Made by a program: the position numbers and the translations under genes. The notes beneath the pieces are model-generated. The model ran no database searches. It was not told the DNA's origin and saw only the letters and a list, made by a program, of their open reading frames with translations. From Planctomycetia bacterium (GTDB taxonomy: Bacteria; Planctomycetota; Planctomycetia; Pirellulales; JALHLM01), in the NCBI GenBank assembly GCA_034440135.1, contig JAWXBP010000144.1, positions 1 through 33,900 of the forward strand: 33,900 bases of DNA. The letters run 5' to 3'. Shown here in pieces: positions 18,130-27,230 of this stretch (position 1 is its first letter; the number at the start of each line of letters is the position of its first letter).

Positions 18130-18750
18130 TTTCATTTGTTTGTTGTGTGTGCTTGCGCTTTTGACGTCGCCCTCCATCGCGTTGGCCCAGTTTGGCTGTC
18201 AACCATTTGATCGCCTTCATCCAGACTGCCCGCGGATGAATCCAAGCAACGGTCACTGGTACGCGATCTCAGGCGTTGGAAATCAGGATCCCACCTGGGA
18301 CGCGGCAGGATCTCGGCGGAATCGCTCGAATTCATGGGCATGCGAGGTTACCTCGCCACGATCACCTCGGAAAGCGAAAACGCGTTCATCAGTGAATGGG
18401 TGCACGGCGACGCCTTAGTCTGAATTGGCGCGTCTGACAAGGATGTCGAGGGTGAATGGCGTTGGATGACGGGACCAGAGGCGGGCGAGTTGTTCTGGCT
18501 GGGCGATGAGGACGGGCAGGCCTTTGGTTACAACAACTGGCAGCCCCGGGAACCGAACGCTTGGGTCAACGAGAACTACGCTCACGTGGGCTGGCATGCT
18601 CCCGACACGTGGAACGACTACACCGACACGCACTCAACAACTCGAAACTATATCGTCGAGTTCTCGCCTGTCCCCGAGCCCAGCACCTACACATTGCTCA
18701 GCATCGGCGGAGTGGCTCTTGCACTCCACTCACGTCGCCGTGGGGGCTGA
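18122..18750 (+). pseudogene. Broken C-type-lectin-like PEP-CTERM gene
   Basis: The sequence parallels the intact gene at 20032-20673. It has a signal peptide (MRFFICLLCVLALLTSPSIALA), NPSNGHWYAISG, an EPN motif, TWNDY, and a C-terminal VPEPSTYTLLSIGG sorting tail. Two lesions are visible. After WDAA, near 18307/18308, one base is missing relative to the paralogue, and the frame changes from 2 to 1, continuing as ISAESLEF...RGYLATITSES. In that second frame, TGA at 18421-18423 replaces the TGG of the paralogue (LWIGASD versus LV-stop-IGASD). Both must be repaired to restore the protein. A sequencing error could explain one lesion but hardly both. Start and ribosome-binding site are shared exactly with the intact copy. 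Confidence 0.88.
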
Positions 18751-18826: not shown

Positions 18827-19966
18827 ATGTTCCGCTTCGTTATCGTCGTCCTTTCTCTTGTTTTGATCGCCGTGTCCGCGTCGCCGACGGTTGCCGGTTC
18901 GCCGGAAGTGAAGTTCACTTCGCTCGGCCAAGTTTATGTTGGGCGAATTTCCCCGAACGGCTCGACCGTCGTTGGGCGAACGCAGACAACGGACCAGGCG
19001 TTCCGATGGACGGCGGATTCGGGATTCGCACTATTCGATTTGGACCATTTTGTGGGCGCATCCACGGATGGCAGCCTCCTGGTTGGCGAGAGTGATAATG
19101 GAGATGTCTTCCAATGGACCCCCGCGTCCGGATTGGAACCAATGAATGTTCCAGATCATTTCACTCCGACAAACATCAGCGCGAACGGTCGTTTTCTCTC
19201 GGGTTATTCATCCCTGAACAACTCGTTTGTTCCTGTATTGTTGGACACGATCGGGTCAAGCTTTTTAGTTCCGTACCTGTCGAGCGGGAAAGCCGGTGGA
19301 ACTGCGCTCAGCGTTTCGGAGGACGGCAAGTTCGTCGTGGGATCACTCGGCTTTAAAAATCCTGCGGATTGGATTGCAAGAGCCTCAGAGGCATTTCGCT
19401 GGGACGCCGGCCACGGAACCATCGGACTCGGAGACTTGCCCGGCGGACCGTTTTACAGCCGGGCGTTCGACGTTTCGGGCGACGGGTCAGTCGTGGTAGG
19501 CGAGAGCATTTCCGGGGCGTCAGCTGCAAACTCGCCGCATCAGAACGATACCGAAGGGTTTTATTGGACTGACCCCACGGGCATGGTGGGCATCGGAGAT
19601 CTGCCCGGCGGACCTTTCTTCAGTGTTATCGATGCGGTGTCTGCGGATGGTTCCATCATGGTGGGGACTAGCATTTCGGATCGCGCCCAAGAAGCGATCA
19701 TTTACGACTTGAAGCACGGAATGCGACCACTCCAGGATGTACTCGTCGATAAGTACGGCCTCGCCAACGAACTCGCTGGCTGGCAGCTGGAAAGCGCCTT
19801 CGACATCTCCGCCGACGGCAGGACCGTTGCTGGCATGGCCAGGGATCCTCAAGGGCATTACACAGCTTGGGTTGTGACAGTCCCCGAGCCTAGCACCTAC
19901 GCCCTGCTCACGATCGGCGGAGCGGCGTTAGCGGTCTATGCGCGCCAGCGCCGTCATCGCACTTGA
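18827..19966 (+). CDS. HAF-repeat PEP-CTERM exported protein
   Basis: The 379-residue protein has a signal peptide (about 1-23, ending ASPTVAG). Repeats of the HAF type follow: GLGDLPGGPFYSRAFDVSGD then GSVVVGES, GIGDLPGGPFFSVIDAVSAD, and SADGRTVAGMA, which suggest a beta-propeller-like secreted domain. The C-terminus VPEPSTYALLTIGGAALAVY followed by ARQRRHRT is a PEP-CTERM sorting signal: motif, hydrophobic helix and basic tail. Such proteins are processed by an exosortase and placed at the cell surface or in extracellular matrix. No exosortase is in this window. GGAG lies 9 nt before the ATG. The binding or catalytic role is unknown. It is flanked by the broken and intact lectin paralogues. 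Confidence 0.85.
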   Translation: MFRFVIVVLSLVLIAVSASPTVAGSPEVKFTSLGQVYVGRISPNGSTVVGRTQTTDQAFRWTADSGFALFDLDHFVGASTDGSLLVGESDNGDVFQWTPASGLEPMNVPDHFTPTNISANGRFLSGYSSLNNSFVPVLLDTIGSSFLVPYLSSGKAGGTALSVSEDGKFVVGSLGFKNPADWIARASEAFRWDAGHGTIGLGDLPGGPFYSRAFDVSGDGSVVVGESISGASAANSPHQNDTEGFYWTDPTGMVGIGDLPGGPFFSVIDAVSADGSIMVGTSISDRAQEAIIYDLKHGMRPLQDVLVDKYGLANELAGWQLESAFDISADGRTVAGMARDPQGHYTAWVVTVPEPSTYALLTIGGAALAVYARQRRHRT

Positions 19967-19997
19967 AGTTCATCACGGCCAGGTTTGATCGGTTTCT

Positions 19998-20039
19998 CTT
20001 CGACAGGGGCAAATTGTCGAGGTTCGGTATCATGCGTTT
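19998..20039 (+). repeat. 42-nt direct repeat over the lectin-gene start, copy 2
   Basis: Identical to 18088-18129. It contains TCGACAGGGGCAAATTGTCGA, a 6-bp dyad with a 9-nt centre. The right arm runs into the GAGG ribosome-binding site, which lies 9 nt before ATG 20032. Confidence 0.9.
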
Positions 20040-20673
20040 CATCATTCATTTAGTGGCGGCACTCTGCTGCGCGGTTGTCGCTCGGCCCGCCTCGGCGGTC
20101 GAGCTGAGTTGCTTTTCCAGTCGTGGAGACATCGGGAAGCCATGTCCCCGCTTGAATCCCCTCAATGGGCACTACTATGCGATGGGAGTGCCCGCAGTCG
20201 CGACCTGGGACGACGCCCGAGCGGCGGCGGAATCGTTCACCCTCAAGGGAGTTCGGGGCCACCTGGCGACGATCACGTCCGCCGAGGAAAGCGATTTTTT
20301 GAATCGCAATTTTCATCTAGAGTCGCTGTGGATTGGCGCGTCCGACGCCGCGATCGAAGGCGAGTGGCGCTGGGTCGTGGGTCCGGAGGCCGGCGAGTTG
20401 TTCTGGCTGGGCGCGGCCGACGGCCAAGCACTTGGCTATGCCAACTGGGGAGGCAATGAGCCGAACGGATTCACCCCTGACGAGGACTACGCAGAGTTCA
20501 ATTCACTTACTACCGCGGTTCAGGGAACCTGGAACGACTACACATCGGTGCAAGACCCCAACCGGTTTCTCGTTGAATTCTCCGTTGTCCCCGAGCCCAG
20601 CAGCTACGCCCTGCTCACCATCGGCGGAGCGGCGCTGGCGATCTATGCCCGCCAGCGTCGACGTCGCACTTGA
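20032..20673 (+). CDS. C-type-lectin-like PEP-CTERM surface protein
   Basis: From ATG 20032 the product is 213 residues. The signal peptide is about 1-22 (cleavage near PASA-VELS). A C-type-lectin-like domain spans about 35-183, with GHLATITSAEESDF (77-90), LWIGASD (99-105), W-EPN (NEPN, 142-145) and TWNDY (166-170). EPN and WND are the calcium and mannose-type sugar-binding motifs of C-type lectins. VPEPSSYALLTIGGAALAIY (186-205) plus ARQRRRRT is the PEP-CTERM tail. Only two cysteines are present (27, 38), both N-terminal, so the usual disulfides are absent. The frame extends to 19963, but the ribosome-binding site and the paralogue fix the start at 20032. Confidence 0.88.
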   Translation: MRFIIHLVAALCCAVVARPASAVELSCFSSRGDIGKPCPRLNPLNGHYYAMGVPAVATWDDARAAAESFTLKGVRGHLATITSAEESDFLNRNFHLESLWIGASDAAIEGEWRWVVGPEAGELFWLGAADGQALGYANWGGNEPNGFTPDEDYAEFNSLTTAVQGTWNDYTSVQDPNRFLVEFSVVPEPSSYALLTIGGAALAIYARQRRRRT

Positions 20674-24014: not shown

Positions 24015-24452
24015 AGCGCGGAGGCGTGGGGAAGCATGTCGAACAACGAACCAAATCCGAATGACTGAATCACGAGCATGCCGGCGTTGTGCTTCCTCGC
24101 TCAACAAAAAGAGCGGTAGGGGGGAATAGATCCTCCCATGACGGCGCCCGAAGTTCGGGCCCCGCTGCGGCACTTGCTCGGCGTGCGCCGCTGGAACGAA
24201 AAAGAAATCGTCGCCTGCTCTGCCTGGCGACAATCGCGCAACTCCATCGCCGCCCAATGTCCTGCAAAACGACGTAAAACGGCCCGGCAGAGAAAGAAAT
24301 TGAAAAGGGCGCTGTCGTATTAAGCTCCAGGTTGCGCATCCCCACACGCCACTTCGGCAACGCGAAGTTGTAACACTTTCGTCCTCCCCTCGCATTGTTG
24401 GGTAGTACGAACGAACCGCCAACTAACCGTTTTCAGGAAGTGGGATACAACA
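24015..24452. other. 438-nt intergenic region before the metzincin pair
   Basis: No convincing gene is visible. A small in-frame stretch (24138-24323, plus) has no recognisable motif and no well-placed ribosome-binding site. A hairpin ACTTCG-GCAACG-CGAAGT lies at 24351-24368. The promoter-like box described separately follows at 24370. Confidence 0.5.
24370..24397 (+). promoter_or_regulatory. Conserved box GTAACA-N16-GCATTG upstream of metzincin gene 1
   Basis: GTAACA (24370-24375) and GCATTG (24392-24397) are separated by 16 nt. The same two hexamers at identical spacing precede gene 2 at 25039-25066, while the spacers differ. Distance to the ATG is 61 nt from the start of GCATTG. The AAC core and spacing resemble ECF-type promoters, but that is inference. 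Confidence 0.45.
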
Positions 24453-25019
24453 ATGAACGACCAAGGACGACTAGACTACAAGTTACCCGGCAATAAGAAG
24501 GTGAATCTCGCACTATTTTGGGCGACGAATTCCTTCGGCGACAAGCACACTGCCGGCCTCAATAAGGCGGAGGCCATGCTGAAAGAGCACGGCATGGGTC
24601 TGAACTGCTGGCCGTCGAGCCGTATCAAGACGCCCGATCGGACGTTTGATTTTGGGCCAGAATTGATCCGCGAAGAGCAGTACACCGACATCTATCGCAC
24701 GGTAAGCGGCGTCGCCGACGGGGCAGGGTTGCGAGAGCACTTGATCGTGGTGTTTTGCAGTTTTGTCAAGCGCGCCAATGGCACCACGATTTCTCGAGGC
24801 CCGTTGCTTTGCTTCCGCAGGCCGATGGTGTTTGTCTCCTGCTCGCCAGGAGACGACGCGGTGACGCTACTGCATGAAGTCGGTCACGCCGCGGGCATGG
24901 ACCACGACCTGACCTCCACAGGAACGACTGCCCGCAATTTTATGAACGAAGCGGAGACGCGCTCCACGATGATGAAATGGCAGGTGGAGAAAATGGGGCA
25001 GGCGTTCTTTATCACCTGA
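24453..25019 (+). CDS. Minimal metzincin-like zinc protease, tandem copy 1
   Basis: The 188-residue protein has no signal peptide or transmembrane helix. LLHEVGHAAGMDHD (139-152) gives the metzincin zinc motif HExxHxxGxxH with H141, H145, H151 and catalytic E142. NFMNEA follows, with M164 13 residues after the third ligand, a plausible Met-turn. The N-terminal half (RLDYKLPGNKKVNLALFWAT, CWPSS, TFDFG, EEQYTDIYRT) matches no family I recognise. There is no prodomain. Most metzincins are secreted, so a short cytoplasmic member is unusual. AGTGGGA precedes the ATG. It is 128/188 identical, without gaps, to the next gene. Protease activity is predicted, not shown. Confidence 0.75.
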   Translation: MNDQGRLDYKLPGNKKVNLALFWATNSFGDKHTAGLNKAEAMLKEHGMGLNCWPSSRIKTPDRTFDFGPELIREEQYTDIYRTVSGVADGAGLREHLIVVFCSFVKRANGTTISRGPLLCFRRPMVFVSCSPGDDAVTLLHEVGHAAGMDHDLTSTGTTARNFMNEAETRSTMMKWQVEKMGQAFFIT

Positions 25020-25038
25020 TACGCGCCGAGCCAGTTCC

Positions 25039-25066
25039 GTAACAACCGTACCGCGGCGTTGCATTG
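25039..25066 (+). promoter_or_regulatory. Conserved box GTAACA-N16-GCATTG upstream of metzincin gene 2
   Basis: GTAACA (25039-25044) and GCATTG (25061-25066) repeat the arrangement found before gene 1. GTAGTGCGAA follows, compared with GTAGTACGAA in gene 1. The box starts only 20 nt after the gene 1 stop codon, so gene 2 may have its own promoter. Confidence 0.45.
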
Positions 25067-25122
25067 GTAAGTAGTGCGAAATCTCCGGCAACACGACCAA
25101 CCCCAAACAGTGGGACAACACA

Positions 25123-25689
25123 ATGAGCGACGAAGGACGATTGGACTACGTGGTTCCCGGCGACAAGAAGGTGAATCTCGCCTTGTTCTGGGCGACGAAT
25201 TTCTTTGGCGACAAAGACAAATTCGTCATCGACACCGCGGAATCGATGTTGAAGGAACATGGAGTCAGCCTCGTTTGTTGGCCGTCGAGCAAGTTGAAAA
25301 CGGCGGACAATACGTTCGATTTCGGCAGCGGACTGATGCGGCAGGAACAATATAGCGACATCTACCGCACGCTATCCGCAGCCGCGGAAAAGGCCGGCAA
25401 ACGCCAGTCGTTGTACGTCCTGTTCTGTCAATTCATGGGTCTCGCCAATGGAGTGACCATCTCCAACGGCCCGATGCTCTGCTTTCGCACGCCCATGGTG
25501 TTTGTCGCGCCGACGCCAGGTAACGACGGCGTGACGCTGTTACACGAAGCTGGCCACGCCGCTGGCTTGGACCACGATAAAACGTCCACCGGCAAGACGG
25601 GACGTAACTTCATGAACGAAGCCGAATCCCGGTCGACGATGATGAAATGGCAGTTGGAAAAGCTGGTGAAGGCGTTCTTTATTAGCTGA
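25123..25689 (+). CDS. Minimal metzincin-like zinc protease, tandem copy 2
   Basis: Also 188 residues, aligning without gaps to copy 1. The zinc motif is LLHEAGHAAGLDHD (H141, E142, H145, H151), with the Met-turn candidate in NFMNEA (M164) and the shared C-terminus RSTMMKWQLEK...AFFIS. Differences cluster at residues 32-38, 86-107 and 129-136, outside the active site, which suggests diverged specificity or partners with catalysis retained. No export signal is visible. The leader (62 nt versus 61 nt) is also conserved, ending in GTGGGACAACACA before the ATG. The duplication unit is about 670 bp. Confidence 0.75.
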   Translation: MSDEGRLDYVVPGDKKVNLALFWATNFFGDKDKFVIDTAESMLKEHGVSLVCWPSSKLKTADNTFDFGSGLMRQEQYSDIYRTLSAAAEKAGKRQSLYVLFCQFMGLANGVTISNGPMLCFRTPMVFVAPTPGNDGVTLLHEAGHAAGLDHDKTSTGKTGRNFMNEAESRSTMMKWQLEKLVKAFFIS

Positions 25690-25816: not shown

Positions 25817-27163
25817 CTACTGCGCCCGCAATTCTTCTGGCAAGTACAGTTCGTTCTCCTTGTTTTCGGCGATTTCCGCCGGCGTGCCTGCATCCCATTG
25901 CGTCGGGTGCTGGTGCCCTTTGGGATAGAGCGATTCCATCGGTTCCCAGACGCAATCGACGCGGTCCGCGAACAGGTCGCCGATCAGCAGATCGGTGATC
26001 GTGTTCCGGAGATGGGGGAAATTCTTGACGAAGTGGCCGAAACTGAAGCCGTTGTAGTATTCGCAGACCAGGCGGCGCATGCGGTCGATGCCCCGGTTGA
26101 ACGCCGGCGCCCAGGCGCCCAGTTGCGCGGCGGATAGATCGTTCTTGGCAATGCCGTCGCAGATCGCATCGGCAGCCAGTTCGCCGGATTTGAGCGCCAG
26201 GAGCACGCCGGACGAATAGAGCGGGTCCAGGAACCCGAAGGCGTCGCCGATCATGACCCAACCGTCGCCGGCGGCCTGCGTGGCGCGGTAGGAATAGTCC
26301 TTGGTAGCAAAATAGCCCGCAGCGCGCTCCGCGCCTTCGATGCGCTTTTGAACGGCCGGACACTTTTCGACCTCTTCGTTGTAAACTTGTTCGTGCGAGC
26401 CGCGCCCTTTGAACAAATAGTCGAACGGGCCGACGACGCCCACGCTGATCGTGTCGTCGTGCTGCGGGATGTACCAGAACCAACCTTGCTTGTCCGGCGT
26501 CTGGATGACGATCGTGGCTCCCTCATCGCGGCCCGTGTCGCGGTAGGCGCCTTTCCAATAGGTCCAGATGGCGCCCTTGTTCAACTCCGGATCCCAAATT
26601 CGCAGCTTCAATCGATTCATCAACATCGCCGATTGCCCGCTGGCGTCGACGACCGCCTTGGCATGAACGTCGAGTTGCTGCCCGTCCTTGGTTTGAATGC
26701 GCACGCCGGTCGCACTGTCGCCGTCGAACAGCACTTCCAGGACGCGAGTTTCTTCATGCGCTTCGACGCCATGCTCGCGCGCGTTCTCCAGCATCATCTG
26801 GTCGAACTCGCTGCGAATCACCTGCCAGGTTTGCGAGCACTCGTGCGGCTTGTTGTCGTGGAAGTAAAACGGCGCCGATTGCTTCCCGGCCGCGTTGACG
26901 AACTGCACGCTGAACTTCTTGACGAAGCAACTCGCCTTCATCTTCGGCAGCATGTTCAGCCGCTCGAGCACCCAATACGTCTCCGGGATCAGCGATTCGC
27001 CGATGTGGAATCGCGGGAACTTATCCCGCTCGAACAGCACGACCTTGTGGCCCTGCTGGGCGATCAACGTGGAGACCGTCGCCCCGGCCGGACCACCGCC
27101 GATGACCACCACGTCCGGGTTCGTGTTGACGCTGCTTTGCCCGCCGGTTGAGTCCAAAAACAT
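25817..27163 (-). CDS. FAD-dependent halogenase-like oxidoreductase
   Basis: From ATG 27163 (AGGAG 8 nt upstream) the product is 448 residues. Features are the FAD-binding VVVIGGGPAGATVS (18-31), RFHIGESLIP (51-60), WFWYIP (228-233) and GDAFGFLDPLYSSG (306-319). The WxWxIP motif and the GDA-FxDPxxSSG segment are those of flavin-dependent halogenases and their relatives, including geranylgeranyl-reductase-like enzymes. The WxWxIP motif is associated with halogenation, but some family members carrying it are hydroxylases, so the reaction and substrate remain open. No separate flavin reductase or biosynthetic cluster is adjacent. A promoter with an overlapping dyad lies upstream. Confidence 0.8.
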   Translation of the reverse strand: MFLDSTGGQSSVNTNPDVVVIGGGPAGATVSTLIAQQGHKVVLFERDKFPRFHIGESLIPETYWVLERLNMLPKMKASCFVKKFSVQFVNAAGKQSAPFYFHDNKPHECSQTWQVIRSEFDQMMLENAREHGVEAHEETRVLEVLFDGDSATGVRIQTKDGQQLDVHAKAVVDASGQSAMLMNRLKLRIWDPELNKGAIWTYWKGAYRDTGRDEGATIVIQTPDKQGWFWYIPQHDDTISVGVVGPFDYLFKGRGSHEQVYNEEVEKCPAVQKRIEGAERAAGYFATKDYSYRATQAAGDGWVMIGDAFGFLDPLYSSGVLLALKSGELAADAICDGIAKNDLSAAQLGAWAPAFNRGIDRMRRLVCEYYNGFSFGHFVKNFPHLRNTITDLLIGDLFADRVDCVWEPMESLYPKGHQHPTQWDAGTPAEIAENKENELYLPEELRAQ

Positions 27164-27216
27164 GGCCGCCGCTCCTGGGGGACGAACGAGGGAACGCCTT
27201 AGCTGTTTCACGGATT

Positions 27217-27230
27217 GTTGTCTAAACAAC
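27217..27230 (-). promoter_or_regulatory. Operator-like dyad upstream of the halogenase-like gene
   Basis: GTTGT-CTAA-ACAAC is a perfect 5-bp dyad overlapping the downstream edge of the predicted -10 element (27229-27234). The position near the transcription start is typical of repressor sites. The regulator is unknown. Confidence 0.4.

What the first reader, a model, noticed from the sequence alone, without database searches (positions are those of the whole stretch)
24453..25689. Tandem minimal cytoplasmic metzincins
Two adjacent 188-residue proteins share HExGHxxGxDHD and a downstream Met (M164), the zinc and Met-turn signature of metzincins. They lack a signal peptide, prodomain and any N-terminal domain I recognise. 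They are 128/188 identical by direct count, with variation in three surface-like blocks and complete conservation of the active site. Metzincins are normally secreted and kept latent by a propeptide. A short intracellular pair suggests a distinct family, possibly with diverged substrates, or non-classical export.
Basis: partly seen in the sequence, partly recalled or inferred. Interest (0 to 1): 0.75.

Follow-up and report, generated by a model that had tools for sequence, protein, structure and literature searches.

The report
Tandem signal-less adamalysin-like metzincin pair
A planctomycete carries two neighbouring genes for small zinc proteases that are predicted to fold like snake-venom metalloproteinases but have no export signal; relatives joined to toxin-loading modules suggest they are weapons fired by a contractile secretion machine, though this is not proven.

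Summary
Two tandem 188-residue ORFs (24453-25019 and 25123-25689, +) in a Pirellulales MAG are 128/188 identical, under strong purifying selection (dN/dS about 0.1), and carry HExGHxxGxDHD plus M164. They have no signal peptide or prodomain.

The metzincin reading is supported for this pair. A nine-sequence alignment gives an AlphaFold model with pLDDT 81 and pTM 0.84. Its 50 best structural matches are all metzincins, led by adamalysins (Z 13.1, 162 residues aligned). Sequence matches to reprolysin families stay below Pfam cut-offs. In distant relatives only HExxH is invariant: the third His shifts and the Met is lost.

The family is rare (8 genomes found, all Planctomycetota). In two relatives the domain follows a PG_binding_1-like module and in one a LysM module, none with a signal peptide. 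LysM and PG_binding_1 have been described as T6SS effector-loading domains. All 8 carriers encode TssC, against 10 of 19 non-carriers. The PG-binding-like module also precedes a DUF3289-like (colicin M-type T6SS toxin) domain and lipase-like domains.

Most likely these are stand-alone T6SS-type cargo effector proteases. The fold is well supported. The delivery route is inferred: the window has no vgrG or immunity gene.

The parts
24453..25019 (+). Metallopeptidase copy 1 (P0001), 188 aa, ATG start, stop included
   Evidence: no signal peptide
25123..25689 (+). Metallopeptidase copy 2 (P0002), 188 aa, ATG start, stop included; the copy modelled (pLDDT 81, pTM 0.84)
24873..24905 (+). HExxHxxGxxH zinc motif of copy 1 (residues 141-151)
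25543..25575 (+). HExxHxxGxxH zinc motif of copy 2 (residues 141-151)
24942..24944 (+). Met-turn methionine M164 of copy 1 (in RNFMNE)
25612..25614 (+). Met-turn methionine M164 of copy 2 (in RNFMNE)
24366..24452 (+). 5' leader of copy 1, resembling the leader of copy 2, so the duplicated unit probably included upstream sequence
   Evidence: local score 33; best of 300 shuffles 29
25033..25120 (+). 5' leader of copy 2, in the 103-base gap between the genes

Best explanation
The two genes encode active, minimal zinc metallopeptidases of the metzincin clan with an adamalysin-like catalytic domain and nothing else. H141, H145 and H151 should hold the zinc, E142 act as general base, and M164 form the Met-turn (motif and predicted fold shown; activity inferred). 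They are stand-alone members of a rare planctomycete effector-domain family. Other members carry the same domain behind a PG_binding_1-like or LysM module with no signal peptide (shown). The most likely delivery route is a type VI secretion system as cargo loaded through VgrG: the fused relatives carry their loader in cis and the window pair would use one in trans (inferred). The target is then a protein in the envelope or cytoplasm of a neighbouring cell (inferred). Duplication followed by divergence of the amino-terminal two thirds, with the active-site third conserved, fits diversified substrate or loader recognition (inferred).
For: Fold: pLDDT 81.3, pTM 0.84 from nine sequences. Foldseek hits to fragilysin 1.5e-6, snake-venom metalloproteinase 1yp1 1.4e-5, ADAM17 and archaemetzincin. 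VIA-align Z 13.1, rmsd 3.3, 162 aligned to 4j4m, and all 50 listed rows are metzincins. The family profile aligns colinearly with ADAM8 17-155 to 17-155, though only at E 0.011. Selection: dN/dS about 0.1. E142, H141 and H145 are invariant in nine homologues. Delivery: the domain is C-terminal to a LysM (Pfam E 3.7e-6, G958) and to PG_binding_1-like modules (G260, G1027; sibling modules hit PF01471 at up to 3.1e-8; alignment A5), none with a signal peptide. LysM and PG_binding_1 are two of six domain families found N-terminal to T6SS toxins or as separate genes in vgrG loci, and LysM was shown to bridge VgrG and effector (PMC10673891). TssC in 8/8 carriers against 10/19 non-carriers (p 0.02). 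The PG module is in 5/8 carriers and 0/19 non-carriers, with other C-termini: DUF3289-like, a colicin M-type T6SS toxin (PMC11148199), and sequences that look like alpha/beta hydrolases. Neighbours in G958 and G941 are toxin-like (YwqJ deaminase 2.2e-5; PF03497 0.001, both below cut-off).
Against: No vgrG, PAAR, adaptor or immunity gene lies beside the pair: upstream is a dus gene, downstream a convergent FAD halogenase-like gene, in a region rich in housekeeping genes. The window genome itself has no PG module at E<=1e-5. No member found lies in a T6SS cluster; TssC is on other contigs or megabases away. The TssC comparison is small, the non-carriers were hand-picked from the listing and are phylogenetically clustered, and T6SS is common in this group. 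The PG-module comparison is biased because the module alignment came from three carrier genomes (only G941 and G958 are independent). The Met and third His are not conserved in the module-fused members, so inference from those to the window pair is indirect.
Confidence: 0.5

Rival explanations
1. Intracellular housekeeping or regulatory proteases: small prodomain-less metzincins that act on the cell's own proteins, as archaemetzincin-like or Spartan-like enzymes do.
For: No signal peptide, housekeeping neighbourhood, no immunity or secretion gene nearby, weak profile hits to SprT/Spartan over the motif, archaemetzincin among Foldseek hits.
Against: Very patchy distribution: 8 genomes found in several overlapping sets of 241 to 397 planctomycete genomes. 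A housekeeping enzyme should be widespread. Relatives are fused to LysM or PG-binding-like modules.
Confidence: 0.25
2. Cargo of another injection or non-classical route, such as an extracellular contractile injection system, or release by lysis.
For: LysM proteins are also core parts of eCIS particles (PMC10673891); metallopeptidase toxins are frequent in PVC/eCIS loci (PMC3482391); no signal peptide.
Against: eCIS genes were not searched for; TssC is present in every carrier. The LysM here is fused to the effector, the arrangement described for T6SS.
Confidence: 0.12
3. A metzincin fold without proteolysis: a pseudo-peptidase or other zinc-dependent enzyme.
For: Third His, Gly and Met vary among relatives, and toxin loci often hold decayed domains (own knowledge).
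Against: In the window pair every catalytic and structural position is intact, E142 is invariant in all nine, and dN/dS is about 0.1.
Confidence: 0.08

Closest known systems
Adamalysin/reprolysin catalytic domains (MEROPS M12B; snake-venom metalloproteinases, ADAM8, ADAM33, TACE)
   Same: Predicted fold over 162-168 residues, HExxHxxGxxHD motif, downstream Met
   Different: 8-15% identity, no signal peptide or prodomain, bacterial, below all Pfam reprolysin cut-offs
Fragilysin / BFT (M10C) of Bacteroides fragilis
   Same: Best Foldseek hits (E 1.5e-6); bacterial metzincin with adamalysin-like catalytic domain
   Different: Fragilysin is secreted as a proenzyme with a prodomain (own knowledge; proBFT entries)
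Archaemetzincin (M54)
   Same: Small metzincin of about 180-190 aa; Foldseek hit 2x7m at E 2.2e-3
   Different: Archaemetzincin signature HEXXHXXGXXHCX4CXMX17CXXC (PMC3427221) is absent here
Tpe1 / VgrG2b C-terminal metallopeptidase T6SS effectors
   Same: HExxH zinc peptidase as T6SS cargo or VgrG-fused toxin (PMC6899460)
   Different: Classed as M35 (PMC10673891), not metzincin; paired with an adjacent immunity gene
Tox-MPTase1-5 and PVC-metallopeptidase of polymorphic toxins
   Same: Zincin domains used as toxins, some in planctomycetes (PMC3482391)
   Different: Described there as Wss1-like or as HExxHxxQ-E, not as HExxHxxGxxH with Met-turn; carried behind RHS repeats or in eCIS toxins

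Membership tests
Metzincins (clan MA(M)) | HExxHxxGxxH zinc motif | tested here: met
   Both window copies and G941; not met as a family-wide feature: G001 lacks the Gly, and G026, G070, G958, G1027 and G260 have a shifted His
Metzincins (clan MA(M)) | Met-turn methionine | tested here: met
   M164 in both window copies, G001, G026, G070, G941; replaced by other residues in G260, G1027, G958
Metzincins (clan MA(M)) | Metzincin fold | tested here: met
   Predicted model, Z 11.7-13.1 to 50 metzincin entries
Metzincins (clan MA(M)) | Three His converging on one zinc above the Met | tested here: inconclusive
   Implied by the fold match; coordinates not available, and no metal in the model
Reprolysin / adamalysin (M12B; Pfam PF13688, PF13583) | Match above the curated cut-off | tested here: not met
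   22.3 and 18.7 bits against cut-offs of 27 and 22
Archaemetzincin (M54) | HEXXHXXGXXHCX4CXMX17CXXC | tested here: not met
   D152 follows the third His; the Cys pattern is absent
T6SS cargo effector | No Sec/Tat signal peptide | tested here: met
   Hydropathy, all eight family sequences tested
T6SS cargo effector | T6SS present in the genome | tested here: met
   Four VipB/TssC matches in the window genome; 8/8 carriers
T6SS cargo effector | Loading or adaptor module in cis or next door | tested here: inconclusive
   Fused LysM in G958 and PG-binding-like module in G260 and G1027; absent in the window pair and its neighbours
T6SS cargo effector | Adjacent immunity gene (antibacterial effectors) | tested here: not met
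   No candidate gene beside the pair
T6SS cargo effector | T6SS-dependent secretion | not testable with these tools
   Needs an experiment
Tpe1 / VgrG2b (M35) effectors | M35 Asp-zincin fold | tested here: inconclusive
   The model matches metzincins, and HxxGxxH fits metzincins, not Asp-zincins; an M35 structure was not compared directly

The most novel reading that the evidence does not exclude
A previously unnamed adamalysin-like metzincin family serves as cargo toxin of planctomycete T6SSs. It belongs to an undescribed polymorphic effector set in Planctomycetota in which a constant PG_binding_1-like or LysM loader is combined, in cis or in trans, with exchangeable C-terminal enzymes (metzincin, colicin M-like, lipase-like).
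Probability: 0.4. Interest if true: 0.65.

Novelty: new variant of a known kind. Interest (0 to 1): 0.5.

Why it matters
A search of the held library for metzincin together with type VI secretion returned no effector of that kind; the T6SS metallopeptidase effectors found are of the M35 type. If the reading holds, an adamalysin-like protease joins the injected arsenal. It gives a concrete, testable set of candidate effectors in Planctomycetota, where the library searches turned up little on T6SS effectors.

Tried and rejected
The first structure job with five sequences gave pLDDT 42, and its structural search returned only 4-OT/MIF-like noise; both discarded.

Homologue searches in phages, plasmids and viral contigs found nothing, so there is no sign of a mobile or phage origin. 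The first genome-contig scan found nothing; the second, with alignment A1, found only two relatives already known.

Weak hits in glutamine synthetase (L010), flavin reductase (L015), oligopeptidase-like and SprT-like proteins were dismissed as motif-only or spurious. PHROGs and PADLOC gave nothing above noise, so a defence-system reading has no support.

T6SS loci of the window genome, G001, G260, G941 and G1027 were fetched to look for the loader modules or the peptidase; none was there. eCIS genes were not searched for. No M35 chain appears in the structural-match rows shown.

Full report
The window lies in contig C144 of a 7.3 Mb Pirellulales genome in 534 contigs; the same-genus relative is a Pirellulales MAG. 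Two ORFs of 188 codons lie in tandem at 24453-25019 and 25123-25689. They are 128/188 identical in protein and 395/567 in DNA, with differences concentrated at codon position 3 and dN/dS about 0.1. The 5' leaders are also similar (score 33, best of 300 shuffles 29), so the duplicated unit probably included upstream sequence. The same-genus relative G001 has a copy, cut by its contig end, that is 83% identical to copy 2 and groups with it (99/97 support). The duplication therefore seems to predate the split of the two species. G001's contig shares no other DNA with the window, so the locus is not syntenic there.

Neither copy has a signal peptide, and none can be added by an earlier start.

Family searches give only sub-threshold hits over the motif: Reprolysin_5 22.3 bits against a cut-off of 27, Reprolysin_4, Peptidase_M66, and nothing useful in NCBIfam. 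Iterated searches of planctomycete genomes found the domain in eight genomes: the window's G000, G001, G026, G070, G260 and G941, G958, G1027. Phages, plasmids and viral contigs gave none. The family is thus rare and patchy within the order and class.

Across nine sequences P124, D135, T138, H141, E142, H145, R170 and F186 are invariant. The full HExxHxxGxxH with a downstream Met is kept by the window pair and G941. G001 keeps the third His and Met but has His in place of the Gly. G026, G070 and G958 have a His one position later. G1027 and G260 have one several positions later, and the three module-fused members (G958, G1027, G260) have lost the Met. So the window pair are canonical metzincins by motif, but the signature is not family-wide.

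A structure predicted from five sequences failed (pLDDT 42). With nine sequences, P0002 reached pLDDT 81.3 and pTM 0.84, with strands 15-23, 48-55, 97-101, 110-113 and 125-128, an active-site helix 138-146 that ends just after H145, and a C-terminal helix 175-185. Foldseek returned fragilysin, a snake-venom metalloproteinase, ADAM17, PAPP-A and archaemetzincin. VIA-align gave Z 13.1 (162 aligned, rmsd 3.3) to the venom protease 4j4m, and all 50 rows shown are metzincins. A profile of the family aligned to ADAM8 colinearly from 17-155 to 17-155, at a marginal E of 0.011. Coordinates are not exposed by the tool, so the three-His geometry is implied and was not measured.

The most informative evidence on function comes from the relatives' architecture. 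In G260 (L040) and G1027 (L067) the domain is C-terminal to a module of about 105 residues whose siblings match PG_binding_1 above the Pfam cut-off; these two proteins themselves scored no such Pfam hit. In G958 (L066) it follows a LysM (27.2 bits, cut-off 20.9). None has a signal peptide, which is odd for cell-wall-binding modules unless they leave by a route that needs none. A survey of 130,825 vgrG loci found LysM and PG_binding_1 among six domain families that occur either fused N-terminally to T6SS toxins or as separate genes, and showed that LysM bridges VgrG and effector (PMC10673891).

The same PG-like module, searched in 27 genomes, occurs in 5 of 8 carriers and 0 of 19 non-carriers. 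Three of those five supplied the query, so only G941 and G958 are independent. Its other C-terminal partners include a DUF3289-like domain (sub-threshold, E 2.4e-4), a family shown to be a colicin M-type T6SS toxin (PMC11148199), and sequences that by eye look like alpha/beta hydrolases. In G941 the module is a separate gene directly upstream of such a hydrolase. That gives a precedent for the module being fused in one genome and free in another. TssC/VipB is found in 8 of 8 carriers and 10 of 19 non-carriers (one-sided p 0.02), with the sampling caveats given under evidence against. The window genome has four VipB matches on three contigs.

Taken together, the best reading is that these are stand-alone effector metallopeptidases of a T6SS-type system. 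Shown: genes, selection, motif, predicted fold, family, modular relatives, T6SS presence. Inferred: activity, loading in trans, delivery, target. Weak points are the lack of any vgrG or immunity gene beside the pair and the lack of family members inside T6SS clusters. Some polymorphic-toxin systems lack immunity genes, which has been taken to mean distant targets (PMC3482391). The known T6SS metallopeptidase effectors, VgrG2b and Tpe1, act in the prey periplasm (PMC6899460); VgrG2b is M35-type (PMC10673891), so this would be a different protease class doing a similar job.

Noticed in passing
L067, L040, L062, L094, L096, L098, L099, L100, L093, L061: A PG_binding_1-like N-terminal module (MxLxSxLF...DxAHI...NIVGKMT...LD) without signal peptide, fused to varied C-terminal enzymes in five planctomycete genomes: a candidate polymorphic effector set.
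   Followed up: partly
L102:9035-10542: In G941 a gene of two PG-binding-like modules ends where an alpha/beta-hydrolase-like gene begins; in G1027 a similar combination is one fused gene.
   Followed up: partly
L070:8016-9557: Gene beside the LysM-metallopeptidase in G958 has a YwqJ-like deaminase domain (just below the Pfam cut-off).
   Followed up: partly
L069:3805-5388: A 527-aa toxin-like protein near the stand-alone member in G941, with a weak PF03497 match.
   Followed up: no
window 24453-25689: G+C of the pair (0.57, 0.55) is lower than the window mean (0.61); for copy 2 only 2% of equal-sized stretches are as low. Weak hint of horizontal acquisition.
   Followed up: no
window 25820-27229 (-): FAD-dependent tryptophan-halogenase-like protein convergent with the pair.
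   Followed up: no
window 19963-20673: A C-type-lectin-like protein with an apparent PEP-CTERM tail; a similar partial ORF lies at 18466-18747.
   Followed up: no
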